In this document: one piece after another, positions 9,284-27,994 of the stretch | Layout of the letters: the number at the start of each line of letters is the position of its first letter | Numbering within the stretch: position 1 is the stretch's first letter | Assembly (NCBI RefSeq): GCF_003671715.1 | Contig: NZ_RAIF01000012.1 | Coordinates: forward strand, 723,879-787,878 | Length of the DNA stretch: 64,000 nt | Direction: 5' to 3' | Origin: Streptomyces sp. E2N166 | GTDB taxonomy: Bacteria; Actinomycetota; Actinomycetes; Streptomycetales; Streptomycetaceae | The notes under the pieces: model-generated | Databases searched by the model: none | Seen by the model: the letters and a program-made list of their open reading frames with translations, nothing else | What the model was told of the DNA's origin: nothing | Made by a program: the position numbers and the translations under genes

Positions 9284-9599
9284 AAGCCACCCCTCCCTCA
9301 CGGATATCAGGATGCGGCTAGCCACACCCACCGCACAAGGCACGGACCGTGACCGGTGGCCGGCCACGCGACCGACGAAGAGGGAACTCGTCCGACGGTG
9401 CAAGCGACGCGAAGGCTGCCGCTGCCGGCCGGCCCGTTGGCGGGCATCGCGGAACGCATGGCCGGCGGGCACGTCATCGAGGGTGTCGAACGGGCCCGCC
9501 GGTACGTCTACGGCGTGCGCGGCCTCCGGATGTGTACGCCTGCAACGGTGGCGTCCCCGCACGCGCGTACCTGAACGTTCCTGCGCCGAGAGGCTGGAG

Positions 9600-9646
9600 T
9601 GGGGCGGGTGGGACTCGAACCCACGGCCGGCGGATTATGAGTCCTT
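9600..9646 (-). pseudogene. 3' half of a CAU-anticodon tRNA (tRNA-Met type) at an integration junction
   Basis: On the minus strand the sequence has an anticodon loop with CAT (complement of 9637-9639), the 3' anticodon strand, a perfect T-stem/loop (GTGGG, TTCGAGT, CCCAC) and a 3' acceptor strand ending CCGCCCCA. No D-arm or 5' acceptor strand is found upstream; that sequence is replaced by the repeat at 9637-9659. This is what remains when a tyrosine-integrase element recombines in the anticodon loop. No CCA is encoded, as is common in Streptomyces. Confidence 0.75.
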
Positions 9647-9659
9647 TTCGGATCTTCCG
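9637..9659. repeat. att-like 23-bp direct repeat, copy 1
   Basis: The 23 bp starting ATGAGTCC and ending CTTCCG recur exactly at 15099-15121 in the same orientation. This copy overlaps the anticodon side of the tRNA remnant. Similarity between the two loci continues loosely for about 120 bp downstream. Interpreted as the core of an attachment site. Confidence 0.75.
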
Positions 9660-9760
9660 ATCCGGCCCCACTCTTGCCTCGATCTTCCTATAACCGCAGG
9701 TCAGAGGCACTTCGCCGTTCTGGCCCTGAGCCGGCCTTCCTGATCCTTCCGGGTCCTTCC

Positions 9761-9778
9761 GTCCACTGCGTGTCCACT
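9761..9778. other. Candidate integrase arm-type sites, copy 1
   Basis: GTCCACTGCGTGTCCACT contains two direct GTCCACT units 11 nt apart. An almost identical pair lies at the same relative distance after the second 23-bp repeat (15221-15238). Short direct repeats beside a core site are typical of tyrosine-integrase arm binding sites. The rest of the gene-free stretch 9284-10226 shows nothing else convincing. Confidence 0.4.
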
Positions 9779-10226
9779 GGCCGCCCCCCGAGAGTCCTCC
9801 CGAGGGAGCCACTTGAGGATGCCCGCCGGGATCGATGCAGGTTGAGCGGTGGGCGAGTCGAGGTCTCGAACTCGCACGCAGCGGAGTGCCTTACCGACGA
9901 GAAAGGCCCCGACCTCTTCGCCCGAGGGTGGAGCCACGCGGCCTTTTGGCAGGTCAGCCGCCTGTTCCCAGACTACCCCGGTGCTGAGCGGTGGTCACGA
10001 TCAGGCACGCCGCGCTCAGCATCCACTCCCTCCGGGGGCTGGAGCCTGGCCGGCTTTGAAGGTGAGCACCCAGGCTTCAGCCTGCGTGTGAGCCGGGTAG
10101 GACGTGCAGACGTATGCACTGGCTGGGAACAATTACGATGAGGCTCCGGTGTCGGCGGACAGTGATGCTGGCTGTCCGAGGTTCGCGTTACGGTGGCTGG
10201 ACCTAGGAGCGAGGGAGGCGTAGACC

Positions 10227-11207
10227 GTGACGGCGAGCGCCGATCACCTCAAGGCACTGCTTAGCGCACATGCGGCTGGCGATGACGAGCGGTTCTACAG
10301 CATTGCTCTGCAGGTCGCGGCAAAGTCTGCACGACAGGGCCATAGTCGTCTTGCGGCAGAACTGCGGGAGCTGATCGACACTTCGCGAGCAGAGAAGATC
10401 AGCCGCCAGCCTGCCCCTACGCCTGTGGTGCAGCCACGCGGGGAGCTGGCGAGTCTCCTTACCGCTGACTATCCAGAGACCCGACTGGCCGACATGACCC
10501 TGGCCGATGACACGCGTACGGCTTTGGAGAAGGTACTGCATGAGCAGCGCCAGCGAGGCCGCTTGGAGCGTTTTGGGTTTACGCCCGTACACCGACTACT
10601 ACTGTCTGGCTCGCCGGGCACAGGCAAGAGCATGACGGCAGCAGCGTTGGCACGAGAGCTCGGTCTGCCGCTATTTACGATCCGCTTGGATGGGCTGATC
10701 AGCCGGTTCATGGGTGAGACCGCCTCGAAGCTGCGCCTAGTGTTCGATGCCGCAGCGCAGACGCGCGCTGTGTACTTGTTTGACGAGTTCGATGCGCTGG
10801 GTGCTGACCGGGCCAATGGCAATGACGTCGGTGAGGCTCGTCGGATCTTGAATTCGTTCTTGCTCTTCTTGGACCAAGCGCCTGCGGAGAGTCTGGTGGT
10901 AGCGGCAACCAATCATCGTCATTTGCTTGACGGTGCCCTTTTCCGCCGGTTCGACTTGGCGATCGTCTACGGGCAACCGTCGACGGACCAGGCTATTGAA
11001 GTTCTGCGACGACGGCTCGCCGCAATGGACACCTCAGGGGTAGCGTGGGGAGATCTCTCTGCTCTCACAGAGCAGCTGAGTCACGCTGAGCTGGTCAAGG
11101 CTGCCGAGGCGGCCGCCAAGCGGGCGATTCTCGGGGGAAGCGACACGATCGACGCCGACCACCTGAGGGGCGCCCTGAACGAAAGGCACCTCCTGCGTCA
11201 TGCCTGA
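10227..11207 (+). CDS. AAA ATPase of a subtilase-linked pair
   Basis: A 326-residue AAA protein. Walker A is GSPGTGKS (128-135), Walker B is YLFDEFDALG (Asp186/Glu187), and further landmarks are the sensor 1 Asn in VVAATNH and the arginine-finger region LFRRFD. The N-terminal 90 residues are helical and unassigned. GTG 10227 has GGGAGG about 9 nt upstream. Its end overlaps the start of the protease gene by 8 nt (ATGCCTGA), implying translational coupling. In known AAA-subtilase gene pairs the ATPase is thought to control or feed the protease. GC content is lower than in the backbone genes, in keeping with transfer. Confidence 0.82.
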   Translation: MTASADHLKALLSAHAAGDDERFYSIALQVAAKSARQGHSRLAAELRELIDTSRAEKISRQPAPTPVVQPRGELASLLTADYPETRLADMTLADDTRTALEKVLHEQRQRGRLERFGFTPVHRLLLSGSPGTGKSMTAAALARELGLPLFTIRLDGLISRFMGETASKLRLVFDAAAQTRAVYLFDEFDALGADRANGNDVGEARRILNSFLLFLDQAPAESLVVAATNHRHLLDGALFRRFDLAIVYGQPSTDQAIEVLRRRLAAMDTSGVAWGDLSALTEQLSHAELVKAAEAAAKRAILGGSDTIDADHLRGALNERHLLRHA

Positions 11208-13830
11208 GGGTTCCCCTCCGAGCGTCCCGCATCTGCTAGTTCCCTGGTCACCGCGTACGCTGACGCCCCGGCCACCCCGAGCGGCTGGACAGGCTCAGAA
11301 GCTGATCGACCGTACCTCCGATCGTCCTGGGCATTCGGCTCGGCTAATCAGCAATGTCGAGGACGCGCAGGCGGAGGCTCTCGGCGCACGGAGCTCGTTG
11401 GACCCTCGTGATCGCGCGGACGGGTTCGCTATCCGTGTGGAAGCAGCTCCAGAACATGAGCTGAAGTTGGACTCGCTCGACAAGTCAGGGTTGACGCTCA
11501 TGAGCGTCCACGAGGCAGATGAGGAGCGGCCGCAGGAAGCCGTGGTGTGGGTGCCTGACGGGTCGGTGCCCACGCTTCTCCGAAAGATCGACCAGTTCAC
11601 GGAGAACACCAGCTCCGGCAAGCCCAAGAACGCTGCACTGGTCGCAAACGTCGAGCAGATCGAACAAGCCACGGTGGAGAGTCTGTGGCAGGAGCAGGAC
11701 CCCCTCCCTGATCCCGATGCCGTGATCTGGTGGGAGTTGTGGCTTGACCCCGCGCTCAGCAAGGCGGCCCCCGTAGAAACCCTGCGGCACTTGTCGCGGG
11801 TGCATGGCTGGCACATGGCGCAGCGGACCATTGGGATCGGGCATTTCCGGGTCGCCCAATTGCGCACCAACGTGCGCGGACTGACCCAGGTCCTGCGCAC
11901 GAACGCCTGCCCGTCCGAGATCCGCAGGCCGACGTTCACTGAAGAGTTCCACAGCCGTGAGCTGAGGGACCTACATCGCGACTTCGTAGTCGATCTCGTC
12001 GGTCGCCTTCATCCTCCCGCACCTGGCGCACCCACCATCACGCTGTTCGACACCGGCGTGGACCAGGAGCACCCACTGCTGCGCCCCATCCTCATCGGCG
12101 CTGACAGCGTCATCGGCGGAGAAGGGCCGGACGATAACGACCCTCGTGGACATGGAACGCGGATGGCCGGCCTGGCAGCCTTCGGGGATCTTGAGGGCGC
12201 GCTCTCGTCGACCGCACCGATACGGCTGGATCATCACCTGGAGTCGGTGAAGATCCTTCCGCAGAGAGCCCCGGCAACACCGCAGCCGTTTGGAGAGGTG
12301 ACGGCGACAGCGGTTGCCACGGCCGAAACAGCGAATCCCGAGCAGTCTCGCACCCGCGTGTTCACCATGGCCGTGACAGCTGAGTCCGGGGAGGGCGTCA
12401 ACGGAACTGACGGAACGGCAACCCTGTGGTCCGCGGCCGTAGACGCTCTCGCTGTCGGCACGGACGTGACAGTGACACACGACCGCATCGACCTGCTCGG
12501 GCCACCAGAACCCGATCAAACACGCTTGATCGTCGTCTCCGCTGGCAACGTCCGTGACCACCGCGCCACCGACCTCATGGATGGAAACGGAACGGCCACC
12601 TACCTGGATCTGTGCGACACCTCCCGAATCGAGGATCCGGCGCAGGCGTGGAATGCGCTGACCGTCGGCGGTCATACCGAACTTGCTCATGTGCCTACTG
12701 CCGAGGATTTCGCCGGCTATCGGACGGTTGCAGCGCCCGGGCTGCTTTCCCCGCACAGCCGCACCTCTGTGATGTTCCGCGACGCTGCGGCTTTGAAGCC
12801 TGACATCGTGATGGAGGGAGGCAACCTCCTCGTCGATGACGACCTGACCGTGGTCAGCGGCCACGACGCGGTCTCTCTTACCACCACGGCCCGCTCGCAT
12901 CTCGGTCAGTTGCTCACCACGATCGATGCCACGAGCGCCGCGACGGCGCAGGCTGCCCGCCTCGCAGCTCTCGCCTACGCCCGCTATCCGAACCTGCATG
13001 CAGAAACCGTTCGCGGCCTGCTCGTACATGAGGCCCAGTGGACCGACGCCATGATCGAGGGCGTCTACAACCGCAATGGTCGCCGCAAGATCGGTGCGGG
13101 TCAGCTCGCCCGCACCGTGCTGCGACGCTACGGCTGGGGTGTGCCCAGCGAAGAGCGAGTGTTGTCCAGTACTGCCAGCGCCGTCACCATGATCGTTCAG
13201 GGCTCGTTGAAGCCCTTTGTCCGCGACAGTAGGACGGTGCGCCTCGGCGAGCTGAAGCTGCATGAATTGCCCTGGCCTCGTGAGCAGCTTCTGGATCTGG
13301 ACGCCGAGGAGGTGCGTCTGCGGGTAACGCTGTCCTACTTCATCGAACCCAACCCGGGCCGACGCGGCATGCTCGGGCAGCACACCTACGCCTCCCACCG
13401 TCTCCGCTTCGCTCTCAAAGGTCCCTTCGAGACCATGGAGGAGTTCGAGAGGCGGATCGCCCAAGCCGCCCAGGCAGAGGACGACGCCCGTACGAGCATC
13501 CGGCCCTTCGACGCCGATAAGAACTGGCTCGTGGGCCCAACCAATCGTGACCGCGGCTGCCTGCACGCCGACATCTGGAGAGGCACTGCCCGGGAGCTGG
13601 CTGACTGCGGTGTCCTTGCCGTCTATCCCGCCGGCGGTTGGTGGAAGTACCACAACAGCTCCGACCGCGTCGGCCGGAGCGTTACATACGGCCTGCTCAT
13701 CTCGCTGACCACCCCTGAGGTCAGCGCCGACTTGTACACCCCCACAGCCATCCAACTCGGTGTCCCCGTCCCTGCTGAACTCCGCACCACAACAGACACA
13801 GCCGTCCCCGTCGAGACACGCCTGTTCTGA
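11200..13830 (+). CDS. S8 (subtilisin-like) serine protease, partner of the AAA ATPase
   Basis: An 876-residue protein with an intact-looking subtilase triad: Asp284 in TLFDTGVD, His318 in RGHGTRMAG, Ser579 in ATSAATAQAARLA (the usual Gly before Thr-Ser is Ala). There is no signal peptide, so it should act in the cytoplasm, unlike most subtilases. About 280 residues precede the catalytic domain and 250 follow; these may sense or bind the substrate. It is coupled to the upstream ATPase gene and followed closely by the CoiA-like gene, so the three probably form one operon. Confidence 0.82.
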   Translation: MPEGSPPSVPHLLVPWSPRTLTPRPPRAAGQAQKLIDRTSDRPGHSARLISNVEDAQAEALGARSSLDPRDRADGFAIRVEAAPEHELKLDSLDKSGLTLMSVHEADEERPQEAVVWVPDGSVPTLLRKIDQFTENTSSGKPKNAALVANVEQIEQATVESLWQEQDPLPDPDAVIWWELWLDPALSKAAPVETLRHLSRVHGWHMAQRTIGIGHFRVAQLRTNVRGLTQVLRTNACPSEIRRPTFTEEFHSRELRDLHRDFVVDLVGRLHPPAPGAPTITLFDTGVDQEHPLLRPILIGADSVIGGEGPDDNDPRGHGTRMAGLAAFGDLEGALSSTAPIRLDHHLESVKILPQRAPATPQPFGEVTATAVATAETANPEQSRTRVFTMAVTAESGEGVNGTDGTATLWSAAVDALAVGTDVTVTHDRIDLLGPPEPDQTRLIVVSAGNVRDHRATDLMDGNGTATYLDLCDTSRIEDPAQAWNALTVGGHTELAHVPTAEDFAGYRTVAAPGLLSPHSRTSVMFRDAAALKPDIVMEGGNLLVDDDLTVVSGHDAVSLTTTARSHLGQLLTTIDATSAATAQAARLAALAYARYPNLHAETVRGLLVHEAQWTDAMIEGVYNRNGRRKIGAGQLARTVLRRYGWGVPSEERVLSSTASAVTMIVQGSLKPFVRDSRTVRLGELKLHELPWPREQLLDLDAEEVRLRVTLSYFIEPNPGRRGMLGQHTYASHRLRFALKGPFETMEEFERRIAQAAQAEDDARTSIRPFDADKNWLVGPTNRDRGCLHADIWRGTARELADCGVLAVYPAGGWWKYHNSSDRVGRSVTYGLLISLTTPEVSADLYTPTAIQLGVPVPAELRTTTDTAVPVETRLF

Positions 13831-13855
13831 TGGCCATAGAACGGGGGAGGTAGGA

Positions 13856-15067
13856 ATGGGTCTCACCGCGATTGATCCCTCCTTCGGGATCCTGGACGCC
13901 ACTCAATCGGATCTGGGCTGTGGGCGGGACTGGGCAAGCGTTCACCGGATGCGGCCTCGGCCGATGCTGTTATGTCCGGCCTGCCACCACCGCGTCCATG
14001 CCAAGCTTTCCCCAGGCGGCGTACGGTTCTTCGCCCATGATCCGGGAGCATCTCGGCAGTGTGCGCTGGCGGGTGAGTCGGTCGAACATCATCGACTGAA
14101 GCTGGCACTAGCCAGCTCCGTCCGCGAGGCAGGGCACCATGCGTCCGTTGAGGCGGCCGGGCCCGAGGGACTATGGCGTGCGGATGTGTTGTCTACCAGC
14201 CCCGATGGCGCCACCCGCTGGGCCTGGGAAGCTCAGCTATCCGCAGCAACCAACACGAACATAGAGGAGCGCACCGCCCGCTATGCCACCGACAGCATAG
14301 AAGTGTGCTGGGTGTCTGACCGACCCAGCACTTGGCTCGGAGCCGCTCCGTCGCTGCTAGTGAGGCCCGCTGGCATCGGTGACTACGCCGTGGAGGCTGG
14401 CACAGCACGGTTCGTCACCGAGGAATGCGCCTGCAGCCACGGCCACCGTACGTGCCCGGCTGGTCGGCACGGACACTGGGAAGGCGGACACGAGGCCCCT
14501 TTGGGAGAGGTAGTCGACCGTATCCTCCACGCTGCCCTGCTGCCCCATGCCCCCACAGTGCCGGTGGTGCTGGAAGCCATGGGCGCTTGGCGATGGTTGT
14601 GGGCGACGTCGGAGGCGATCGCAGAGGCAGAGGTATACGCCGAAGACGAGCGTGTCGGCCGGGAGCGTTGGCGCAACGAACAGATTGATTACGCTGTCCG
14701 CCGATTCCCCGAGGCCAACGCCCCCTTCGTCAACCAGTGGCAGCAGACGCTCGCTCCAACCGCGCGGCAGCGATTGCAGGACGCCGCGCTGGCGCAGGCC
14801 CGCGCCGAGACCGGCAAGCCAGCATTCGTTCATCTGACAGCGACGGCGTATCACTTCGGATGCGGAATTCTGGTCACGGTTGGCTCGGCCGTACCCAACT
14901 CAACCCGGGGCTGGTACGGCCTGATCCGCCCCGATCCCACCCGGCTCGACATGAAGCTGGTCGAACAGCTCGGCTTGGTGCTGTTCACCACCCCCTGTGA
15001 GTCGGCCGCCCTAACCAGAGCAGCCCCGCCCGGAATCCGCGTCATCACGGTCGCGACCCAGGTGTGA
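13856..15067 (+). CDS. CoiA-like zinc-ribbon/nuclease-fold protein
   Basis: A 403-residue protein. The N-terminus has CPACHHRVHAKL and then FFAHDPG followed by Cys and His residues, like the zinc-ribbon plus HxxxP-type start of CoiA competence proteins. A restriction-endonuclease-like segment follows (WRADVLSTSPDG, then WAWEAQLSA), with Asp and Glu-x-Gln at positions expected for a CoiA-type PD-(D/E)xK core. The C-terminal 200 residues are not recognised. ATG 13856 follows GGGGGAGG by 6 nt and lies 25 nt after the protease stop. This is a likely third member of the cassette. The nuclease activity is inferred. Confidence 0.6.
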   Translation: MGLTAIDPSFGILDATQSDLGCGRDWASVHRMRPRPMLLCPACHHRVHAKLSPGGVRFFAHDPGASRQCALAGESVEHHRLKLALASSVREAGHHASVEAAGPEGLWRADVLSTSPDGATRWAWEAQLSAATNTNIEERTARYATDSIEVCWVSDRPSTWLGAAPSLLVRPAGIGDYAVEAGTARFVTEECACSHGHRTCPAGRHGHWEGGHEAPLGEVVDRILHAALLPHAPTVPVVLEAMGAWRWLWATSEAIAEAEVYAEDERVGRERWRNEQIDYAVRRFPEANAPFVNQWQQTLAPTARQRLQDAALAQARAETGKPAFVHLTATAYHFGCGILVTVGSAVPNSTRGWYGLIRPDPTRLDMKLVEQLGLVLFTTPCESAALTRAAPPGIRVITVATQV

Positions 15068-15098
15068 CGGTAGCTCGACGCCTCATCGCCAACCATGG

Positions 15099-15121
15099 AT
15101 GAGTCCTTTTCGGATCTTCCG
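15099..15121. repeat. att-like 23-bp direct repeat, copy 2
   Basis: An exact direct copy of 9637-9659, located 31 bp after the stop codon of the CoiA-like gene. Unlike copy 1, it is not joined to the tRNA 3' half; similarity stops at the anticodon trinucleotide. It marks the far end of the AAA/protease/CoiA-like cassette. Confidence 0.75.
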
Positions 15122-15220
15122 CTTGCGGCCGGATCCTGCCCTGATCTACCCATTTCAGCAGGTCAGCGCATGCAACCTTCGGACCTGCGCGTGGCCTTGC
15201 TGGTCCTTCAGGATCCTTCC

Positions 15221-15238
15221 GTCCACTGCCTGTCCACT
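15221..15238. other. Candidate integrase arm-type sites, copy 2
   Basis: GTCCACTGCCTGTCCACT matches 9761-9778 at 17 of 18 positions and has the same relation to the 23-bp repeat. Confidence 0.4.
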
Positions 15239-15319
15239 ACGGGTGCACCGTGAGCCATCCGCGACGGCCACTGGGGAACCCCGCCGAGGACAGGTGTACA
15301 GGCAGAGGCCTGGTGCCTC

Positions 15320-16056
15320 CTATGACCCAGAGCCCTGCCACCATTGCCTGATCCATCGCCTCAGTTTGGCGGAAGGCTCAGTGCTCAGTGCTTTGAAGAT
15401 GCGGAATCTCGGTAGGCGCTTCCGGAAGGCCAAGGACTCACCCACTACGGCGTCATTACCGGTGGCGTCAGCGAGCTGGGCGGCGGCATCGAAGGCTCGG
15501 GCCTGAATCCGAGCGATCTCCTGCTGGCGTCATCGATCGGGTACCCGGTATCGATCAGCATCCTGACGCCGGTCCCGACCGACGGGGCTGCGGCACCTAC
15601 GCCCTTCACTACCTGCCATCGCGGCCTCGTCTGTGGGTTCGTCGTCAGCGTGCTCGGCGCCCGCGATCGTGATCGTCTGCTCGGAGCCGAGGAGATAGCC
15701 GAGCGCGGTGTCGACCAGCTTCGACGCATCGCCGAGATCGCGCCGCCCGGTTCCGGCTTCGTCATCGCCGGTTATCGCTGCGACGTGGCCGGCCTGATTG
15801 GAGTCGTACGCGGCCAGCAGACGGTAGGCGGCGAGGCGACGAGGCGCCGCAGGTCCTCGTCGGGCACCCAGGAGGAGGTCAACTCCGCCCAGGCGTCGCG
15901 GCCCGGTCGGCGCGGGTCGGCCATGACCGGCTTGTAGTCCAGCCAGCTCCAGAGGTCGGGGATCAGCTCGCCGTAGGCCCAAGGCGCCCCTCCAGGCAGT
16001 CGGCCCCGCGCCGCAGGCGCCCCCCCGTGTCCGATACTCCACCCCAGACCGCTCAT
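15320..16056 (-). pseudogene. Frameshifted phage protein remnant, probably portal-like
   Basis: Protein-like sequence runs through several frames on the minus strand. One frame has WSWLDYKPVMADPRRPGRD and ends VPDEDLRRL; a second continues with AAYRLLAAYDSNQAG and LVDTALGYLLGSEQ; a third has VRMLIDTGYPIDDAS; a fourth has QEIARIQARAFDAAAQ and stops at 15320. At least three frameshifts are needed to join them, one of them an apparent short insertion near 15835. The flavour is that of SPP1/Gp6-type portal proteins of actinophages, judged from memory of such sequences. It cannot make a functional product. Confidence 0.5.
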
Positions 16057-16216
16057 AACGGAGTGATAACACCGGGCGAGAAGATTCCGTGACCTTTCGT
16101 GCGTATTTTTGTGCTTAAGTGCAGGTCAAACAACACCCTCCTCCCACATGATGCGGAGAAGTCACCCTCTCCCTTCACGGTGACTCCGGTAGCCTTCATG
16201 GCATGGAGGTAGGGCG

Positions 16217-17119
16217 GTGACCATGGACGAGCTGAAGTTGGGCGAGGTAGTAACGCGGCGTGATCTGCACTCGCGCTTCGGTGGTACCCCCCAAGGCGGC
16301 ATCTCACCGTCGACGCGGTCTCAGATGGTGATGGTCTTCGTCACCGAGCGACCTAGCCCGGACGACTTCACAGGGTGGGGGGACGACGGAGTTTTCCATT
16401 TTTCAGGCGCTGGCATGCACGGCGACCAGGAGATGACGCGAGGAAACCTCGCGCTGCTGCGCCACAAGGAGCAGGGGCGCGCGGTGCACTTGTTCCACCA
16501 GCTCCGGAAGCACTCAGACGAACCAGGTCGGCTCTATCGCCATCTAGGGCGCTTCGAGGTCGACTCTGAACAGCCGTACTACGTCGCGGACGCCCCAGAT
16601 GCCGACGGCTACATGCGGACCGTGATCGTCTTCCGACTGCGGCCGGTCGGAGCCACTGTCCCCGACGGACCGCGCCTGCCGGTCACTCCGCTGACCGAAA
16701 CACGCGTCACCAGGGCGGCGGACTTCAGGCTGGCCAGCGTGCGCCGACAGCCCCAGGAAACCGCCGGAGGCATCGTCAAACGCTTGACTGCGGAGTACGC
16801 CAGCCACCTGAACGGTCTTGGGCGCGAGGTCGTCACCGCACAGGTGCGCGTGAAGGGCGAAACCTCGGTTGCTCGTGTCGATCTTCTGGACGTCACCGAG
16901 AACAGGCTGATCGAGGTGAAACACAGCGCCGCCCGGCAAGCAGTCCGGACGGCGATCGGCGCCCTCATGGATTACCGCCGCTTCTTCGACCCGACTCCCA
17001 CCCTCGTGCTGCTCGTGCCCGCAGCCCCGAGGGCGGACCTGCTCGACCTCTGTGCGTCCCTGTGTATCGAGGTCGTATGGCCGAACCCTGAAGGAGGATT
17101 CACGTCGACCCATGACTAA
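16217..17119 (+). CDS. Probable modification-dependent (type IV) restriction endonuclease: SRA-like domain plus PD-(D/E)xK
   Basis: A 300-residue protein. Residues about 8-150 resemble the ScoMcrA/YDG (SRA-like) base-flipping fold (GEVVTRRDLHSRFGG; then FHFSGAGMHGDQ), which recognises modified cytosine or phosphorothioate DNA. The C-terminal part has a PD-(D/E)xK nuclease signature: Asp222 in VDLLDV, Glu233 and Lys235 in LIEVKHS, followed by the helix RTAIGALMDYRRF. The GTG start follows GGAGGT by 6 nt. It stands alone, as type IV enzymes usually do, within a run of defence-type genes. Substrate specificity cannot be told from sequence. Confidence 0.6.
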   Translation: MTMDELKLGEVVTRRDLHSRFGGTPQGGISPSTRSQMVMVFVTERPSPDDFTGWGDDGVFHFSGAGMHGDQEMTRGNLALLRHKEQGRAVHLFHQLRKHSDEPGRLYRHLGRFEVDSEQPYYVADAPDADGYMRTVIVFRLRPVGATVPDGPRLPVTPLTETRVTRAADFRLASVRRQPQETAGGIVKRLTAEYASHLNGLGREVVTAQVRVKGETSVARVDLLDVTENRLIEVKHSAARQAVRTAIGALMDYRRFFDPTPTLVLLVPAAPRADLLDLCASLCIEVVWPNPEGGFTSTHD

Positions 17120-17242
17120 CGGCTGAGGCAGTACGCGCAAGGCAATGCGCCGCCGCCCCAGCCGCCGTCTGGTTACCACAGGGGTCCTAGTCGCTGTGAG
17201 TAACCGTGCCCTTGTCCAGCAAAGAACAGGAGCTACTCCATT

Positions 17243-17419
17243 ATGTGCGAAAACAACGCCGTGCCTGAAGTCAGCAACGGTCACGACGCCACTGCGGCCC
17301 GAATCTACGGGCTCGCCCTGGTGGCCGGCGTGCTGCTGATCATCTTCGGGAACACCAGCCCGGTCGAAGCATCGGGATTTGTCTCCCCGTTCCTGGTCAT
17401 GTTCGAGCAGCGGCGGTAG
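17243..17419 (+). CDS. 58-residue single-pass membrane protein
   Basis: A short ORF with AGGAG about 10 nt before ATG. The first 20 residues are polar, then one hydrophobic helix (about 22-38, YGLALVAGVLLIIFG), then a short tail ending in EQRR. No family is recognised. It sits 123 nt after the restriction-enzyme gene and could be part of the same transcript or an independent small effector. Confidence 0.45.
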   Translation: MCENNAVPEVSNGHDATAARIYGLALVAGVLLIIFGNTSPVEASGFVSPFLVMFEQRR

Positions 17420-17497
17420 CTAGCCGGTGGCGGTCGCTCCAGTGGTGCGACCGCCACCGTGCCCGAGGCAGATCACCCCGTCGGTTCACACCACGAA

Positions 17498-17930
17498 TCA
17501 CGGCTTCTTCCCGGCCGCCTCAGCCGTGGCCTCGTCGTAGCCGGGCATGCCTGCGGGCGGAATCGAGGAGCAGGTGCCGAGGAAGCTGTCCGGTCGCTTG
17601 CGCTCTGCTCGTGCTCGCCGAGCTGATCCCGCCGGTCGGCGCGCTCGATCTCGCTCCCGCTGGAGTAGTCGGGCGCTGCACCGTTGGCGATCTTTTGCAG
17701 CTGCAATGCCAGGCCCTCGCTGCGCCCGAGCCGGTACGTCTCGCGTACGCAGTCGAAGTGTGCGGCGCGCTGGCTTCTCCGCTCCGGACGAACAGCCCGT
17801 GAGGCACGCGACCGCGAGGGTGCGCGGCTTCGTCGTCGCCTGCCGCGATGCGGAGGCGACGAGGAAGCGGTCTGCCCGGGCGTTGAGGCTGAGTCCTCGG
17901 TGATGCGGGCGTGGCGACCAGTTAGCTGGC
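17498..17930 (-). pseudogene. Possible frameshifted lipoprotein gene
   Basis: On the minus strand one frame has a lipobox-like LAVACLTGCSSG (near 17800) and a natural-looking end (FLGTCSSIPPAGMPGYDE, stop at 17498). The protein-like middle (HFDCVRETYRLG, then LALQLQKIANG) lies in another frame. Two compensating frameshifts would be needed. No other gene is seen in 17420-18008. This may be a decayed secreted-protein gene or chance. Confidence 0.3.
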
Positions 17931-18008
17931 TGCGCCCGGGCACCTGTGGTCGAGAGCATGGCGACGGCCACTATTGTGAGCCACCTCATTTGCCGGTGAA
18001 CTTGTCGC

Positions 18009-19490
18009 ATGCACCGCTGGACAGCGTTGAACGACCGACAACTCGCGCTCCTCAGAGACATCGCCGATGGAAAGGATCCCAGCGCCCAGGACCCGGGCAT
18101 GCGGCGGTCAACCTATGCGCTGCGCGATCGAGGTCTGGTGACGGTCAGCCGTCAGGGTGGCGGTTGGCAGACGCAGGTCACCGAGGCTGGTCAGTTCTAC
18201 TTGGAGCGCGGTCATCATCCGGAGCATCCGACACTTGGCGGTGCTCCGGGTGAAGCGTCAAAGACGTCGGTGACCGTGGCAACGGGCACAGGCCGTGATT
18301 CCGAGACGACAACTACACCGCGCCGGCGCAAGGGCACGACCGCGCAGAAGAAGCCGCCAACGCCCTACAGCGAAAGGCCCATCCCTGTAGCGCGCCGGGC
18401 GCAGGCAACCAGGCTCGTCGAGCGATTGGTCGCAGAGCGCCATGTTGTCATCTCGGAGCCGGACGAAGCTGAGATTACAGAGTGGCGGCGTGTCGTCGAC
18501 TTCGCCAAGCGGCACGGACTTGCTCCGGCAGGGAAGCGCATCGAGAAGCAGCGACTTTGGAATGCGGGTCGGGACCTGCAGATTTCGCTGGTGGATGGCC
18601 CGCACGCCAACTCTGGGCGCAGGTCCTCGGTGGACAACCCGCGAGTTCCAGTACCTGCGCAGCTGCGCTCACCTCACCGCGTCGTGGTGGGGTTGCGAGA
18701 TAGTGAGCGCCGGCTTCTCATGCCACCCTCCCTGCGACGCCGAGCTCTGTTGCTGCTCCAGGGACTGGCCGCAGAGGCTGAGCGCCGGGGGTACAAGGTC
18801 CGGGAGCATCCCGCCCTCGAGCGTGACAATCGTTCAGCGCACTACTACAACGGCCGGTACTTCCCCGCGAGCTGCCGGGAAGGGGTGCTGGACATCGTCA
18901 TCGATGGCTTCACCTGTAGCGTCACGATCAAGCAGGAATTTCCCCAATCTGCTGACCCAGATCGCTCTCAGCAGCTCGCCCTGGACGTCGGTTACAGCCG
19001 ATCCCATAGGCAGCACCACTGGGGCGACCGCAAGCGGTCGAAACTCGAAGACGTCCTGGGGATCGTGCTTCAGGAGCTGGAGACCCGGGCGATCGAGGAG
19101 CGGCAGAGGGAGTTGGATGAGAAGCGCGCGAAAGAAGAGCGCCGCATCCGCTGGGAAGCGGCCATGGACGCTGCCAAAGAAAAGGCTGCTCAGGCTCGGT
19201 TGGGAACGATCCTCCGTGAGCAAGCAAAGCAGTGGCAGGAAGCGCACGCGCTCCGCCAGTATTGCGACGCCCTGGAACGCCGGCTCGACGTACCGGCGGG
19301 AACAGAGACCGACGTCGAATCGGCTCGTGTCTGGTTGCGGTGGGCACGCGAGTACGTAGAGACGCTGGACCCGCTGACACAACTACCGACTATGCCGTCT
19401 GGGCTGGCGTTCGAGCCTGAAGACCTCAAGCCATACCTCAATGGTTGGAGTCCGTATGGACCGGAGGGGCGCACGGTGGGGTGGGGATGA
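18009..19490 (+). CDS. Unknown protein with N-terminal winged-helix-like and C-terminal coiled-coil regions
   Basis: A 493-residue product not assigned to a family. The first 65 residues (LNDRQLALLRDIADG, then YALRDRGLVTVSRQGGGW) look like a winged helix of the type that reads as ordinary DNA-binding. A basic Thr/Arg/Lys-rich linker follows. The middle (about 120-340) is a mixed alpha/beta region with MPPSLRRRALLLLQGLAAEAERRG. Residues about 350-420 are highly charged and predicted to form a long coiled coil. No strong ribosome binding site precedes ATG 18009. The next ORF start (19487) overlaps its stop. Confidence 0.6.
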   Translation: MHRWTALNDRQLALLRDIADGKDPSAQDPGMRRSTYALRDRGLVTVSRQGGGWQTQVTEAGQFYLERGHHPEHPTLGGAPGEASKTSVTVATGTGRDSETTTTPRRRKGTTAQKKPPTPYSERPIPVARRAQATRLVERLVAERHVVISEPDEAEITEWRRVVDFAKRHGLAPAGKRIEKQRLWNAGRDLQISLVDGPHANSGRRSSVDNPRVPVPAQLRSPHRVVVGLRDSERRLLMPPSLRRRALLLLQGLAAEAERRGYKVREHPALERDNRSAHYYNGRYFPASCREGVLDIVIDGFTCSVTIKQEFPQSADPDRSQQLALDVGYSRSHRQHHWGDRKRSKLEDVLGIVLQELETRAIEERQRELDEKRAKEERRIRWEAAMDAAKEKAAQARLGTILREQAKQWQEAHALRQYCDALERRLDVPAGTETDVESARVWLRWAREYVETLDPLTQLPTMPSGLAFEPEDLKPYLNGWSPYGPEGRTVGWG

Positions 19491-19745
19491 CTTCGGTCGA
19501 GCGGACCGCGTATCCGCGGTTCAAGCGACTGATCCCCGCGCGTGAGCTGCGTGTGTTCTTCACGTCGTCATAGGAGGAACGCGCCTGAGCGGAGGAGGCC
19601 GAGACTTCAACGAGCACCGGCTCGCGCAGCTGCTTGCGCTGAAGTCGTACCGGCGCATGGCTGCTTCCCCAATGCGTACAGGTGCCGAACCAGGTAACGA
19701 AGCTCATGCGCCAGGCGGCAGAGCTCCCTGTAGCCCGATCCATCC
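19487..19745 (+). mobile_element. Fragment of a Tn3-family transposase (N-terminal DUF4158 part)
   Basis: ATG 19487 opens a frame reading MTSVERTAYPRFKR and ARELRVFFT before a stop at 19573. This is the characteristic start of Tn3-family transposases. After two shifts of frame, LAQLLALKSYRRM, CFPNAYRCRT and VTKLMRQAAELPVARSI continue the same domain to about 19745. The rest of the roughly 1000-residue protein is absent. It marks an old insertion or deletion between the two neighbouring accessory genes. Confidence 0.65.
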
Positions 19746-19795
19746 GTTGTCAAAACGCCAAGTGTGCTCGCCCGTTCGGGAACTAGGCTGCCCGG

Positions 19796-21094
19796 ATGGC
19801 ACGATCGTGGACCCGGCTGCACGAATTCCTCGGCCACCCGCCGGGACCGGTGACATACGAGATGGTCGCCGAGGCCGTTCAGCGGAAGCTCGGCGAGAGC
19901 GACGACCTGGACTGGAAGGAGGCCCTGCCAGCCACCTCGCCAGTTAAGGGCGAGTGGAACGAGTTCGCCAAAGACGTCGCCGCTATGGCCAACACCCGCG
20001 GCGGTCTGCTCGTCTACGGCGTCAGCGACGACATCGCGATGGTCGGCATCGACCTGGACGAGGTCAACGACAAGCAGCTGGGCCAGTGGCTGCGCGTCCA
20101 TCTGCAGCCCGCAGTGAGCGGAGTGAGCTACGTCAAGCTCCCGGCTACCGACGGTACCGGCAAGGACATCCTTGTCGTCGACGTCCCGGCCAGTGAGATG
20201 GCGCCGCACTTCCTCTACGGATGGCAGCAGAAGGACAAGGACAAGACCACCTTCAACGCCCCCTTCCGGCACCGTGACGACACCGACTACATGGCCGAGC
20301 ACCAGATCGCGCTTGCGTACCGGGAACGCTTCGCCCGCCAGGCGGCTGCCGAAGCCGCTCTGGACCAGCACGTTCAGCACGTCACGGACCTCGTCCTGGG
20401 AGAGTCGGAAGCCCCTGCGGCATGGCTGGTCGTCGCCGCACGGCCCACGCGTCCCATCCCCAGGATGGTGCCACCGCTGTCCCGCTCGGAGGCGCAGCAT
20501 GTCATGTACCAGAGCGGGAAGCGCGCGGAGGCCCTGCTCGCTGACGCCGTACCGATGCCCCGGCTACGGGTCCCCCAGCTCTTCCATGATCTCCTCGACA
20601 ACAATCCACGCAGGGGCCTGCGCCGCTGGGTCGACACCAACATGCTCGTCCCGTCCCGCGCTACGCGCCGACGCGGCGTGCTGGTGGAGCTCCATCACGA
20701 CGGTACGGTCGTCACTGCCGTCGATCTCTCCCACAACGCCCTGCCGGCGCCGCAGTCGGAAGTCGTACTGCCAGTGGCCACGCCGGTACTCACCAGTGCT
20801 GTCTTCGAGACGGTCGCACTCGTCCACGAGCACCGACTGGCGCTGCGCATGGACGCTCCCATCGAGCTTCGGGCCGTTCTCGGGACGCAGCGCACTGGAC
20901 TCTTCCGCTTCACTCCAGTCGTCCTCGGCCACAGTCGCCCCGAGGTAGCCGAATGGGCACGGCAGCCCTCCGCCGTGCAGCCCGCCCACAGCGACCTGGC
21001 GCCCTTCGCCGACGATCAAGCCCTCACCGCCGGTGCCACCGAGCTCGCAGAAGGATTGTTGCACCAGTTCGGACTCGAAATCATGCCGACGTGA
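19796..21094 (+). CDS. AlbA_2 (Schlafen-like) domain protein
   Basis: A 432-residue protein. Residues about 30-180 form an AlbA_2-type nucleic-acid-binding domain: SDDLDWKEALP, FAKDVAAMANTRGGLLVYGV, then DILVVDVPASE and the FRHRDDTDYM end of the fold. The C-terminal 250 residues are not recognised. In other bacteria AlbA_2 domains occur in regulators and in predicted defence or RNA-targeting proteins. A TAGGCT element ends 6 nt before ATG and no ribosome binding site is seen, so the message may be leaderless. It is convergent with the STAND gene. Confidence 0.7.
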   Translation: MARSWTRLHEFLGHPPGPVTYEMVAEAVQRKLGESDDLDWKEALPATSPVKGEWNEFAKDVAAMANTRGGLLVYGVSDDIAMVGIDLDEVNDKQLGQWLRVHLQPAVSGVSYVKLPATDGTGKDILVVDVPASEMAPHFLYGWQQKDKDKTTFNAPFRHRDDTDYMAEHQIALAYRERFARQAAAEAALDQHVQHVTDLVLGESEAPAAWLVVAARPTRPIPRMVPPLSRSEAQHVMYQSGKRAEALLADAVPMPRLRVPQLFHDLLDNNPRRGLRRWVDTNMLVPSRATRRRGVLVELHHDGTVVTAVDLSHNALPAPQSEVVLPVATPVLTSAVFETVALVHEHRLALRMDAPIELRAVLGTQRTGLFRFTPVVLGHSRPEVAEWARQPSAVQPAHSDLAPFADDQALTAGATELAEGLLHQFGLEIMPT

Positions 21095-21183
21095 GGCCAT
21101 CGGCACGCACGGGAGTGACCGTCAGGTCCAGGGAGAGCGTGGGGTTCCGGTTTCAAGGGACCTTCACGAAGCGGCACACGCGG

Positions 21184-24100
21184 TCAGCCGCTCTGCTGCG
21201 GAAGGCGGCGGTGAGCGAAGACTATGTCCCTCACGCGTTCTACAGCGGCTGGGGCGATGCGGGCCAGTACGGGCAAGGCGTGGTACCAGCCGTCGCCGGC
21301 GAGCGCGCTTGCCGTGAACTGCCGGGCCTCCTGCGCCGTTTCCGTCATGTCGGGCGGGATCTGGGCAATGGCGAGTGTTCGAAACGTGTCGGTGAAGGCT
21401 GTGCTGGTGGATGCCGAGACGGCGCGGATGCCTGACGGCGTCCGGGTGAGATAGCCGGCCACGGCCGCGAATGCCTCGGCACGGTCGTAGGGGACGTTGT
21501 GTCGGCTTGCGCGATGGCGTGCGGCATCGAGGTTGCCGAGTGCCGCGTGGGCGATGGCGATGGCCCCGGTCGGCAGCCCCCACGGGGCGTTGCCGGTCGA
21601 CTTCTCCTCCCACGACGTCAGCGTGTTGCGGGCGATGTCGCGTTCTTCCCGGGCATGCAGGAGGAGCACCGTGAGGAGGTCCTCCGTATCCAGCCAGGTT
21701 TCGGATTCCTTGAGCTTTAGCGCCACGTGTTCGGCGGCTTGGTGAAGGCGGCCAGCGCAGTTGGCGTCAGCATCGGCGATGGCGGCGAAGAGCTCACCGA
21801 GCTCGGCCATACGTCCGCTCCAACCACGCGGTGATGAGTCTGCGGTCAGAAGACGTTCTCGTTGACGGTCGATGAGGTCCACAGCGGTGGCCGGGTCGTA
21901 GGACCGCAGCCCGGCCGCGACGGCCACCAGCGCGCGCTGCCTTCTGTCGTGATCCGCCGGGCCGGTCTCCTCGGCGAGGGCCAGGGCACGGTCACGTTCG
22001 CCGACGTAGGCCAGGGCCTGAGCAGCGGCGCCCTTTGCGTCGGCCACCTCCCGGCCCGGAGCGCCGTCGAAGAAGGAGAAGTTGTCGGCGCCTTCCAGCG
22101 TCCGGGTATGGTCGGCGGCCTCGCACGCCAGTCGTCGAGCATCCTCAGGATGCCCGGCCGGTGAGGCTGTGGCGGCTGCCGCAGCGAGCGCCTGCACTTG
22201 CTCGACAGGGTTCCGGAGACTCCGTGCCAACTGCGCGCCGTCACGCTGCCGGCCGATGGCCGAAAGTGCGGCGCACAATGAGATGAGCCAGGTCTCCCGT
22301 GGCTGGTTGCGCCGAGTGCCTCGGCCTTGGGGAGATCCGAGTGCTTCCAGCGCCTGGGACAGCAGCCGACTCGCCTCGTCGGGCTCGTTACGCTCCGCGA
22401 GTCGGTATGCCTGCTGAGCCAGCGTCTGTGCCGATGGTTCCTCGCCGGGGTCGTCGAGGCCATCGGCGAGCGTGGCCCGGGCCCCGGCGAGCGTGTCCAT
22501 ACCCATCAGCCCGATGTGCCTCTCCTCGGGCACGCAAGCAACGAGACCGTGCGCGCGGTCCACCGAGCCTGTGTCCACCAGGGCCCGTACGACGGCGGTC
22601 AGCATGGGGCTGAGGAGCATGGTCAGATCGGATCCGTCGTCGGCCGACAGGCCATCGGGGTCTCCCAGCGCAGCCTCCAGGCGTTGTGCAGCCCGGTCAG
22701 CCAGGGTGTTCGCCTGTTGCGGGCGGGCGGTGGCCAGGGCCGAGGCTGCGGAAGCGTCGACGGCGCAGGCGGTGAGACGTGCGGGGAACGCTTGGGTGTA
22801 CTGGCTGATCCGTTCGTACATCCGGTCGGCTTGTTCGCCTTCGGCGGCCGCGGCGACGGCGGCCCATGCCGACACGGGCGCGCTCGGATCGGCCGGAGAG
22901 CCGTCGGCCAGCTCCTCGGCATACCGCTCGGCCTGCCCCAGCAACTCCTGAGCCAAAGCGGGGTCGTGAGACTGGGCTGCGAGGGCGGCCCGGGCCACCA
23001 CAGTGGCTCCGGCTTCGTCGCCGGCTGCTGCCGACGCCCCGAGCTTGCCAAGCAGTTCGCGTCCCTGTCGCAGCTCGCCGACGGCCATCAGTGCTACGGC
23101 GGCCTCCCCGGTGGCCTCCTCCGCCTCCTGCTCATCTCCGCTTGGCGGAGCACTTTCCCGGCGGGCCCGCTCAGCCCATCGTGCGGCCTCCGACGCCGCC
23201 TCAACGGCGTGCCGGTCGTCGATTCCGACCAGGACATGGGCCAGCTTCGCCAGCCGAACAGCCTTTTCTGCCGGAAAGGGTGCAACGAGCGCAAGATCCA
23301 TGGCGCGCCGAGCGTGTCCCAGCCTGGCGAACGCCACCGGGACACCTGCTGGCAGGGCCCTGGCCCGCTCGGCGAGCATGGCCGAGGAGGCCGCCAGCGC
23401 CGTCAACGCCACCAAGTCGTCGGGACGATGGCGTCGGACCGTCTGGGCGGTGAGCTCGATGTGGGAGAACGCCGTATCCAGTGAGGCGCGCTCCAACAGG
23501 GCACGTTGACGATGCGGGTCGAGGGCGATCTCGGTCAGCCGCTGGATGTCGCCGAGGCTGTACAGCATGCGCGGGTAGTCGTAGAGCAGGTAGGACGGAG
23601 TATCGGACGGCCAGTCCCGGGCGCGATAGCCATCCGCCCACTCGTGCAGCTGCCTCTCGAACCCGGTCACGTCGCCCAAGGCGGTCAGGGCCTCCCGACG
23701 AAGCTCCTCGTGGCCCAGCGCATGGGCGTGCGAGGCGGTCGGAGACTCGGACACGAGGACCTGGCCGTGGCTGCCGGGGATGAAACTGCGGCCGGTGATC
23801 CCCCGCAGGAGCCTGTCCACCCGGTAGGGGCGCACGCCGACAAGATGGGCCAGGTCGGCGGCCGTGAGGCTGCCGCGGGCCGCGACCAGCAAGCCGAGGA
23901 GGGGGACTCCGACCTCCTCGTCGTCCAGGAGCCGATGCAGCTCATGCCGGGCGAAGGCGCTGATGCCAGGGGCGTGAGACCAGGGATCAAGCGTGCGGAC
24001 GATGTGTCGGGCGCGCAGGGGATGGTCAGGGGGAACGTCGTCCGGAACGGGCGGGCTGGGCCGGCCGGTGACCAGCACCCGCATGCCGCCTGGCGGGACC

Positions 24101-24924
24101 TTCGGCAGCAGGGCGGCGATGCTCAGCCCGTCGGTGGCGGGTCCCTGGTCTTCGTCGAGGCCGTCCACGATCAGCACCAGGCGCCGCCCCCGGCCCTGGC
24201 ACCCCTCCGCTGCGGCTCGGCAGAGGTCGATGAAGTCCTCGGGCCGGCTTCCCACGGTTCCAACGTCCCGCTGGGCGACCGCCGCCAGTTGCCGCATCAC
24301 CGTCTGGAGGAATCCCTGCCGGTCGTTGCGGCCCAAGCGATCGGTGACGAAGCAGGACACGATCTCCACGCCGTCCGGCCGGTGCCGGAGAACGAAGTCG
24401 GAGACCAGGGCTGATTTGCCCGCCCAAGCAGGCGCCTGCCACCACCCGTACGCGGATGTATGAGGGGAATCCTCTGCGGTACAGAACGCGCTCAGTTCCC
24501 GTAGCTCGGCATCCCTGTCCAGCAGCTGCACGGGAAGGACATACTGCTCGATCCAAGCGGCGTGGCTCTCGTCTCCCCGCGATGACGGCTTCGCAGGCGC
24601 GAGAGGCGAACGGAGTGGCTGGGCGTCATCCAACAGGGTGCGCCACCAACGCGTGTCACACGGCACATTCGCCCAGGTGCTCCACTGCTGGACCACGGCG
24701 ATCAGTTGCTCACTGCTGCTCGGATCCGGAGTCTTCGATCTGTTCCAGTCGGGGTTCAGCCACTCCGCCAGGCGCCGGTCGACCTTCGAATCACGGCCGC
24801 CGACCGCACGGGCGACAGCACGACGCGAATGCTCCCGCCCTGCCTGACGGCGGGCGGCTTTGGCTTTGGCCTCCAGGGCCCGCAGCGCGTCGTACAGCTC
24901 ACGAGCCTTGGACGACTCCCCCAC
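21184..24924 (-). CDS. STAND-type NTPase with a long helical-repeat C-terminus
   Basis: A 1246-residue protein. The N-terminal 110 residues are basic and helical with an HTH look (AVARAVGGRDSKVDRRLAEWL). A P-loop ATPase follows, with Walker A near Lys170 (APAWAGKSALV) and Walker B near 250 (LVLIVDGLDED); VLVTGRPSPP is a sensor-like strand. The remaining 800 residues are alpha-helical and TPR-like (many RARRAM and ALLER-type helices). This is the architecture of STAND/NACHT signalling ATPases, which include bacterial antiphage sensors such as Avs; similar proteins in Streptomyces also act in regulation. GTG start with GGAG just upstream. No separate effector domain is obvious. Confidence 0.72.
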   Translation of the reverse strand: MGESSKARELYDALRALEAKAKAARRQAGREHSRRAVARAVGGRDSKVDRRLAEWLNPDWNRSKTPDPSSSEQLIAVVQQWSTWANVPCDTRWWRTLLDDAQPLRSPLAPAKPSSRGDESHAAWIEQYVLPVQLLDRDAELRELSAFCTAEDSPHTSAYGWWQAPAWAGKSALVSDFVLRHRPDGVEIVSCFVTDRLGRNDRQGFLQTVMRQLAAVAQRDVGTVGSRPEDFIDLCRAAAEGCQGRGRRLVLIVDGLDEDQGPATDGLSIAALLPKVPPGGMRVLVTGRPSPPVPDDVPPDHPLRARHIVRTLDPWSHAPGISAFARHELHRLLDDEEVGVPLLGLLVAARGSLTAADLAHLVGVRPYRVDRLLRGITGRSFIPGSHGQVLVSESPTASHAHALGHEELRREALTALGDVTGFERQLHEWADGYRARDWPSDTPSYLLYDYPRMLYSLGDIQRLTEIALDPHRQRALLERASLDTAFSHIELTAQTVRRHRPDDLVALTALAASSAMLAERARALPAGVPVAFARLGHARRAMDLALVAPFPAEKAVRLAKLAHVLVGIDDRHAVEAASEAARWAERARRESAPPSGDEQEAEEATGEAAVALMAVGELRQGRELLGKLGASAAAGDEAGATVVARAALAAQSHDPALAQELLGQAERYAEELADGSPADPSAPVSAWAAVAAAAEGEQADRMYERISQYTQAFPARLTACAVDASAASALATARPQQANTLADRAAQRLEAALGDPDGLSADDGSDLTMLLSPMLTAVVRALVDTGSVDRAHGLVACVPEERHIGLMGMDTLAGARATLADGLDDPGEEPSAQTLAQQAYRLAERNEPDEASRLLSQALEALGSPQGRGTRRNQPRETWLISLCAALSAIGRQRDGAQLARSLRNPVEQVQALAAAAATASPAGHPEDARRLACEAADHTRTLEGADNFSFFDGAPGREVADAKGAAAQALAYVGERDRALALAEETGPADHDRRQRALVAVAAGLRSYDPATAVDLIDRQRERLLTADSSPRGWSGRMAELGELFAAIADADANCAGRLHQAAEHVALKLKESETWLDTEDLLTVLLLHAREERDIARNTLTSWEEKSTGNAPWGLPTGAIAIAHAALGNLDAARHRASRHNVPYDRAEAFAAVAGYLTRTPSGIRAVSASTSTAFTDTFRTLAIAQIPPDMTETAQEARQFTASALAGDGWYHALPVLARIAPAAVERVRDIVFAHRRLPQQSG

Positions 24925-25114
24925 CTACTCCGCCCTCCCAGAGTGCCCGCCGCCGCCCGTCTGCCCGCCTCAGGGCACAGCGGGCACGGCAATGACCAGG
25001 AGCGTAGAGGCACTTCGCCCGCCCTGCCCGCCCTTTGGGACATCCACCACCCACACGCGGCACGGTCATCCCTGTCCGGCCCCACCGGTCGGCGGACACC
25101 GAGGAGAGGAACAC

Positions 25115-25243
25115 ATGAACATGACCACGCCCGTAGCCCGCAAGCTGGGCCGTGCCGCGCTCTTCAGTCTGGTCCGTGGCGCATGCTGGGCACTGGGCTC
25201 AGCACTCGTGGCGGGCATTGTGTGGTGGATCCAGAACCAGTAG
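25115..25243 (+). CDS. 42-residue membrane peptide divergent from the STAND NTPase
   Basis: A short ORF with GAGGAGAGGA ending 4 nt before ATG. It has a basic N-terminus (about 1-16, ARKLGRAA) followed by one hydrophobic helix (ALFSLVRGACWALGSALVAG) and the end WWIQNQ. No family is recognised. It is transcribed away from the STAND gene across a 190-bp gap. A membrane-active effector or an unrelated small membrane protein are both possible. Confidence 0.5.
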   Translation: MNMTTPVARKLGRAALFSLVRGACWALGSALVAGIVWWIQNQ

Positions 25244-25322
25244 CCGCTCAGGAGGGGCGCCTGGGCCGCGCGATGGCGCCGCGCGGTTCGTTCGTGTGGG
25301 TCACGGTTCGCTTCCCTGCAGG

Positions 25323-25354
25323 GCGGCCCCGGGCGGCGTACCGGCCGGGGCCGC
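25323..25354 (-). terminator. Hairpin downstream of the DUF4192-like gene
   Basis: A perfect 10-bp inverted repeat (GCGGCCCCGG / CCGGGGCCGC) with a 12-nt loop lies 9 nt past the stop of the last gene of the minus-strand phage block. There is no U-run, as is common in Streptomyces terminators. Confidence 0.5.
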
Positions 25355-25362
25355 GAGGGCGG

Positions 25363-26445: not shown

Positions 26446-26954
26446 GTCGTGGGTCCTTCGGTTGTGGTGTCGGCCTTCTGCTCGTCGGTGGTTGTGCTGA
26501 CGTGCTTGGGCTTGTGGGCGAGTGCTGGAAGCAGGTGGTCGCGGACGAGCGCGCCGAGGTCGTCGGCCAGGTCCTTGCTGTTGCGTGTGGCGAGGACGGC
26601 GTGCCAGGTGCGGCCGGGCTGGAGCCGGGCGTCGGTGGCGGCTTGTGCTTCGGCCTGCTCGATGTCGGTGCCGTCGGGGATCGGCGGCAGGTCGGGGCCT
26701 GCGGTGATCCAGGTCTGGATGGCGAGCCCGCGGGGCTGGACGCGGAGGCCGATGCGGTGGCCGTCGGGGTGCTGGTAGGCGGCGGTGCGGTCGGGGGTGT
26801 CGGTGTGCTCCTTGCTCCACGGTGGGTCGAGGGTGGGGGCGAGCTGGTCGAGAGGCGGCAGGTCGATCTCGTCGCGAGGTCCGGCGAAGGCCGGGCGTCG
26901 GCGGCGCGGTGCCGGGGTGGTGCCGGGTCGGTCGAAGGGATCGGGTTCGGTCAC
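26442..26954 (-). CDS. Unknown phage-type protein, operonic with DUF4192
   Basis: A 170-residue protein rich in Pro, Asp and Arg, with a central beta-like segment (HRIGLRVQPRGLAIQTWITAGPDLPP). No domain is recognised. It overlaps the genes on both sides by 4 nt (ATGA), so the N6-methylase-like gene, this gene and DUF4192 form a tightly coupled trio. Confidence 0.6.
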   Translation of the reverse strand: MTEPDPFDRPGTTPAPRRRRPAFAGPRDEIDLPPLDQLAPTLDPPWSKEHTDTPDRTAAYQHPDGHRIGLRVQPRGLAIQTWITAGPDLPPIPDGTDIEQAEAQAATDARLQPGRTWHAVLATRNSKDLADDLGALVRDHLLPALAHKPKHVSTTTDEQKADTTTEGPTT

Positions 26955-27961: not shown

Positions 27962-27994
27962 GACGGCGGGTTCCTTTCTGCGGGCGCGCATGAA

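What the first reader, a model, noticed from the sequence alone, without database searches (positions are those of the whole stretch)
10227..15067. Three-gene cassette: AAA ATPase, cytoplasmic subtilase and CoiA-like nuclease
The ATPase and protease genes overlap by 8 nt, the third gene follows in 25 nt, and the whole unit lies between att-like repeats in a defence-rich region. An ATP-controlled protease plus a nuclease-fold protein would make a plausible abortive-infection or surveillance system. AAA-subtilase pairs are known in accessory DNA; linkage with a CoiA-like protein is, as far as I can tell, not described.
Basis: partly seen in the sequence, partly recalled or inferred. Interest (0 to 1): 0.85.

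Follow-up and report, generated by a model that had tools for sequence, protein, structure and literature searches.

The report
IetAS defence pair in prophage cargo
Two of the three genes are a known bacterial toxin-antitoxin and anti-phage pair (IetAS) carried at one end of a Streptomyces prophage, and the third, a DNA-cutting-enzyme-like gene, stays in place while the defence pair beside it is swapped for another system in a related strain, so this is movable cargo and not a new three-part machine.

Summary
The three genes are real: ietA 10227-11207, ietS 11200-13830 (8-nt overlap), and a CoiA-like gene whose likely start is 13856 (25-nt gap). The first two are IetAS, a known AAA-ATPase/subtilase toxin-antitoxin and anti-phage pair; catalytic motifs are intact. 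The third gene is not a conserved partner: none of 10 other intact Streptomyces IetAS loci has it, and none of 20 more distant CoiA-like loci examined has IetAS beside it. S. torulosus carries the same trio, but in S. djakartensis an 80% identical CoiA-like gene follows a different defence pair, Mokosh MkoAB. Those two loci are 95% identical starting 17 nt before the CoiA-like ATG and essentially unrelated upstream apart from an att flank, so the defence pair is exchanged beside a constant CoiA-like gene. The 'att-like repeats' are real copies of a tRNA-Met attachment flank. The trio is variable cargo at the integrase-distal end of a ~90-kb tRNA-Met prophage; a 90-92% identical prophage in another species has 0.6 kb where this one has 15.3 kb. 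Verdict: known pair in a known kind of setting; the swap beside a constant CoiA-like gene is the new part. No function was tested.

The parts
9595..9644 (-). 3' half of tRNA-Met(CAT), truncated at the anticodon loop: outer edge of the prophage (attL side)
   Evidence: Matches the 3' half of the intact tRNA-Met at window-equivalent 100174-100251 (98% over 50 nt); ARAGORN finds no intact tRNA in the window
9637..9975 (.). phage-side att flank, shared with related tRNA-Met prophages
   Evidence: 86% identical next to a near-identical prophage in another species; 87-93% in several other genomes
10227..11207 (+). ietA, AAA+ ATPase, the predicted antitoxin/regulator (Walker A GSPGTGKS at residues 128-135, Walker B YLFDEFDALG from 183)
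   Evidence: PADLOC IetA 2.2e-69; NCBIfam IteA 198 bits, below cut-off; motifs
11200..13830 (+). ietS, S8 subtilase, the predicted toxin/effector protease (D284, H318, N450, S579)
   Evidence: PADLOC IetS 7.7e-33; Pfam Peptidase_S8 1.4e-42; active-site residues aligned across 15 sequences
13856..15067 (+). CoiA-like PD-(D/E)XK nuclease-fold gene, 403 aa (H78/H79, D110, E125-x-Q127); not part of IetAS
   Evidence: Pfam CoiA_nuc 3.3e-8; invariant active-site residues; core modelled as alpha-beta3-alpha-beta
15099..15260 (.). second, diverged copy of the att flank, without the tRNA part
   Evidence: Score 121 against shuffle maximum 31
9976..25280 (.). variable cargo segment of the prophage
   Evidence: A 90-92% identical prophage elsewhere has 555 bp here; a third species has only the 17901-19474 gene here

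Best explanation
Two units sit side by side in prophage cargo. (1) IetAS: the AAA+ ATPase IetA is predicted to hold the cytoplasmic subtilase IetS in check; when phage infection, plasmid conflict or loss of IetA disturbs the pair, IetS cleaves cell proteins and stops growth or kills the cell. That protects the lysogen population from rival phages and helps keep the element. (2) A free-standing CoiA-like nuclease-fold gene, constant at its position while the defence pair upstream is exchanged (IetAS here and in S. torulosus, Mokosh in S. djakartensis) by recombination between the tRNA-Met att flank and the 5' end of the CoiA-like gene. Shown here: gene identities, intact active sites, prophage position, absence of co-conservation, and the swap with a sharp edge 17 nt before the CoiA-like start. 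Inferred: antitoxin/toxin roles (from tested homologues), anti-phage activity, the recombination route, and any nuclease activity of the third protein.
For: IetAS membership. Homology to a Ti-plasmid pair (IetA 51%, IetS 36%), the level at which the tested SGI1 pair resembles pTiC58 (50%/36%; PMC5006074). Tested toxin/antitoxin behaviour of such pairs: PMC5006074 and PMC8562856. Active-site conservation. No co-conservation with CoiA. Swap. Prophage with integrase, xis-like gene and intact tRNA-Met at its far end. Cargo absent from sister prophage. Cargo G+C 0.647 against 0.706 for the phage core and 0.753 for the chromosome.
Against: The trio is found in two species as one block (86% nt identity over 10095-15053), and the 25-nt spacing would allow co-transcription, so a functional link in this lineage is not excluded. 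NCBIfam scores for IetA and IetS are far below the equivalog cut-offs (198 of 510 and 42 of 900 bits), so function could have drifted. The swap rests on one pair of species. No defence assay was possible.
Confidence: 0.82

Rival explanations
1. A genuine three-component system: the CoiA-like nuclease is activated by, or works beside, the IetAS protease to destroy incoming DNA.
For: Same order, strand and tight spacing in two species; active-site residues kept and dN/dS well below 1 in the CoiA-like gene; a CoiA-domain protein was recovered in an E. coli anti-phage selection (PMC9519451).
Against: Third gene missing from 10 of 10 other intact Streptomyces IetAS loci and from the downstream DNA available at the other IetS loci fetched; a close CoiA orthologue follows Mokosh instead; no plasmid record covers 80% of the trio although hundreds carry IetS.
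Confidence: 0.08
2. The CoiA-like gene is a separate one-gene defence or DNA-degrading factor that shares the cargo segment by accident of position.
For: Relatives stand alone or in tandem in many Streptomyces chromosomes and linear plasmids, without a fixed partner; CoiA domain in a tested E. coli defence gene.
Against: No PADLOC model matches it; no enrichment test against control genes was made; compatible with the best explanation, differing only on the third gene's job.
Confidence: 0.45
3. The CoiA-like gene is a backbone gene of one family of tRNA-Met elements that processes DNA for the element, and defence pairs are inserted beside it.
For: Constant in two element copies with 95% identity running on into the next gene while the upstream pair differs; both carry the same att core.
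Against: Not a constant of this prophage family: absent from sister prophages; relatives also occur on linear plasmids with unrelated neighbours.
Confidence: 0.3
4. IetAS here serves only as an addiction module that stabilises the prophage, with no anti-phage role.
For: IetAS-type pairs stabilise pTiC58 and SGI1 (PMC5006074); present on conjugative plasmids.
Against: PADLOC and NCBIfam list the family as anti-phage; here it sits among other defence genes in phage cargo.
Confidence: 0.25

Closest known systems
IetAS (pTiC58 ietA/ietS toxin-antitoxin pair, Yamamoto 2009; listed as anti-phage in PADLOC and NCBIfam)
   Same: AAA+ ATPase then S8 subtilase, overlapping or abutting, same order; all catalytic motifs; 51% and 36% identity to the pTiKerr27 pair
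   Different: Divergent member, below NCBIfam equivalog cut-offs; lies in a Streptomyces prophage and is followed by a CoiA-like gene
SgiAT of Salmonella Genomic Island 1 (PMC5006074) and the mycoplasma AAA-ATPase/subtilase pair (PMC8562856)
   Same: Same two-gene design; shown to be toxin and antitoxin; SGI1 is an integrated mobile element
   Different: Other hosts; no third gene reported in the passages read
CoiA family (PF06054), PD-(D/E)XK nuclease superfamily (PMC1189080)
   Same: Nuclease-like domain with the family's PD-ExQ active-site variant
   Different: No evidence for a role in competence; own C-terminal half; relatives sit on Streptomyces chromosomes and linear plasmids
Mokosh (MkoA/MkoB)
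   Same: Occupies the equivalent position beside the orthologous CoiA-like gene in S. djakartensis
   Different: Unrelated proteins: kinase-helicase plus PLD-domain protein
Prophage defence hot spots of P2/P4-like phages (PMC9122126)
   Same: Variable defence cargo at a fixed place in otherwise conserved temperate phages
   Different: Here a tRNA-Met Streptomyces prophage with cargo at the integrase-distal att end

Membership tests
IetAS | IetA: AAA+ ATPase with Walker A and B | tested here: met
   PADLOC IetA 2.2e-69; GSPGTGKS at 128, YLFDEFDALG at 183
IetAS | IetS: S8 subtilase with complete Asp/His/Ser active site | tested here: met
   D284, H318, N450, S579 aligned with 14 homologues; PADLOC IetS 7.7e-33
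IetAS | Adjacent genes, ATPase first | tested here: met
   8-nt overlap
IetAS | Scores above the NCBIfam equivalog cut-offs | tested here: not met
   198.1 of 510 and 42.1 of 900 bits; these cut-offs define the equivalog, not the family, so a divergent family member
IetAS | Protease toxic, ATPase neutralises; protection from phage | not testable with these tools
   Needs expression and plaque assays
CoiA family PF06054 | CoiA_nuc domain above gathering score | tested here: met
   34.3 against 20.3 bits
CoiA family PF06054 | CoiA_N domain above gathering score | tested here: not met
   20.1 against 26.3 bits; the CxxC and FAH residues are nevertheless conserved
CoiA family PF06054 | PD-(D/E)XK fold and PD-ExQ active site | tested here: inconclusive
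   Residues D110, E125, Q127 invariant; model core has the expected order of elements but overall pLDDT is 49.7 and no PDB match reaches E 0.001
CoiA family PF06054 | Role in competence / DNA uptake | not testable with these tools
   Experimental
Three-gene IetAS-CoiA system | Third gene conserved with the pair | tested here: not met
   0 of 10 other intact Streptomyces IetAS loci; close orthologue with Mokosh

The most novel reading that the evidence does not exclude
The CoiA-like nuclease is a shared third component or recombination anchor that works with interchangeable defence pairs (IetAS or Mokosh), so that one element family updates its immunity by swapping the pair upstream of a fixed nuclease gene.
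Probability: 0.15. Interest if true: 0.65.

Novelty: new member of a known kind. Interest (0 to 1): 0.35.

Why it matters
It settles that the pair is IetAS, and shows a well-resolved case in which two different defence systems replaced each other beside the same downstream gene. It also adds a tRNA-Met Streptomyces prophage family with a variable defence-cargo segment, which gives a place to look for further systems.

Tried and rejected
Three-component system: rejected as main reading for lack of co-conservation. Independent 5.5-kb mobile element between the repeats: no integrase or transposase gene was seen between 9.6 and 15.1 kb, and the tRNA edge, integrase and intact tRNA show a ~90-kb element instead. 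Search of viral contigs for CoiA relatives: none confirmed; the phage collection gave one weak match. Structure: the CoiA-like model is poor outside its core and the fold search gave no significant hit. PDB sequence search for the CoiA-like protein: none. Promoter and terminator scans: nothing above chance. Yamamoto 2009 and an id tried for the anti-phage report of IetAS are not held, so both rest on secondary citations or database names. Megablast of the prophage core against named phages: none.

Full report
The observation. Two open reading frames, 10227-11207 and 11200-13830, overlap by 8 nt, and a third ends at 15067. The third is listed from 13760, but the start at 13856 follows a clear ribosome-binding site, leaves the stated 25-nt gap, and matches the starts of its closest relatives. 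Domain searches give AAA, Peptidase_S8 and CoiA_nuc.

The pair is IetAS. PADLOC assigns IetA at 2.2e-69 and IetS at 7.7e-33. NCBIfam's IteA/IteS models match too, well below their equivalog cut-offs, so this is a divergent member. Walker A and B motifs and the subtilase residues D284, H318, N450 and S579 are in place and align across 15 sequences that include a Ti-plasmid pair. Identity to that pair is 51% and 36%, the same as between the tested SGI1 pair and pTiC58, 50% and 36% (PMC5006074). In SGI1 and in mycoplasmas such pairs were shown to be antitoxin and toxin.

The third gene is not a fixed partner. Of 393 genomes of the genus (Streptomyces, judged by the named records that match them), ten others have an intact or nearly intact IetAS pair (one ietS carries an in-frame stop), and none has the CoiA-like gene near it; of 20 more distant CoiA-like loci examined, none has IetAS. 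In at least two Streptomyces IetAS loci the gene after ietS looks like a type I restriction methylase subunit, judged by eye from the sequence. IetS is on 459 plasmid records and CoiA relatives on 76, but no plasmid holds most of the trio. In the class-wide and viral-contig searches no CoiA-like gene was found in the DNA available beside IetS; most of those loci are short on the downstream side.

A swap. Only two close orthologues of the CoiA-like gene were found, both about 80% identical. In S. torulosus it follows IetAS, with 86% nucleotide identity to the window over 10095-15053. In S. djakartensis it follows MkoA and MkoB of the Mokosh system (MkoA 1.4e-232, MkoB 6.9e-80). These two loci are 94.9% identical over 2270 nt beginning 17 nt before the CoiA-like ATG, and differ upstream except for an att flank (82.6% over 219 nt) and one weaker 197-nt stretch at 70.6%. 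Synonymous divergence between the window and S. torulosus is 0.46 and 0.45 for ietA and ietS but 0.69 for the CoiA-like gene, which hints at, but does not prove, separate histories.

Setting. The left repeat begins with the 3' half of tRNA-Met; the intact tRNA-Met lies at window-equivalent 100174-100251, beside a tyrosine integrase (98137-100026) and a small helix-turn-helix gene of the excisionase type. Tail tape measure, minor tail, endolysin and replication proteins lie between. So the trio is at the integrase-distal end of a prophage of about 90 kb. A prophage 90-92% identical over 25281-37943 in another species has the same att flank with 555 bp where this one has 15.3 kb; a third species has only the 17901-19474 gene there. 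The second repeat at 15099-15260 is a diverged copy of the same flank, as expected if the trio came from a related tRNA-Met element by recombination between att flanks; that route is inferred. Cargo G+C is lower than phage core and chromosome.

Mechanism. IetA is predicted to restrain IetS; disturbance by infection or a rival element frees the protease. This rests on tested homologues, not on tests here. The CoiA-like protein keeps D110, E125 and Q127, the PD-ExQ variant described for CoiA (PMC1189080), and evolves with dN/dS of about 0.2-0.3, so it is probably a working nuclease. What it does is open: a CoiA-domain gene was found in an E. coli anti-phage selection (PMC9519451), which makes a separate defence role plausible.

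Limits. The swap rests on two species, the genomes searched are a sample, gene calls in fetched loci are from my own simple caller, and nothing was tested at the bench.

Noticed in passing
window 16217-17119: Protein with a weak SRA-like N-terminal match (Pfam 0.01; PADLOC type IV restriction 0.0038): a possible modified-DNA restriction enzyme in the same cargo.
   Followed up: partly
window 21184-24924: Large STAND ATPase, PADLOC STAND_TPR 1.3e-225, also in the prophage cargo segment.
   Followed up: partly
window 19796-21094: Schlafen/AlbA_2 domain protein (Pfam 2.1e-12) in the cargo segment.
   Followed up: no
window 18009-19490: Gene of unknown family, 90% identical (DNA) and alone in the cargo segment of a sister prophage (L144).
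   Followed up: partly
window 57026-58327: Radical SAM protein with a partial match to prokaryotic viperin models (PADLOC 3.5e-13).
   Followed up: no
L076, L077, L078, L079, L080: Broken IetAS loci in other Streptomyces: in two, IetA is whole or nearly so and IetS is cut short; in three only IetS fragments were seen.
   Followed up: no
G254, G255, G263, G226 and others: Several genomes hold two copies of the 58-bp tRNA-Met att core some 5-20 kb apart, suggesting tandem elements at this tRNA.
   Followed up: no
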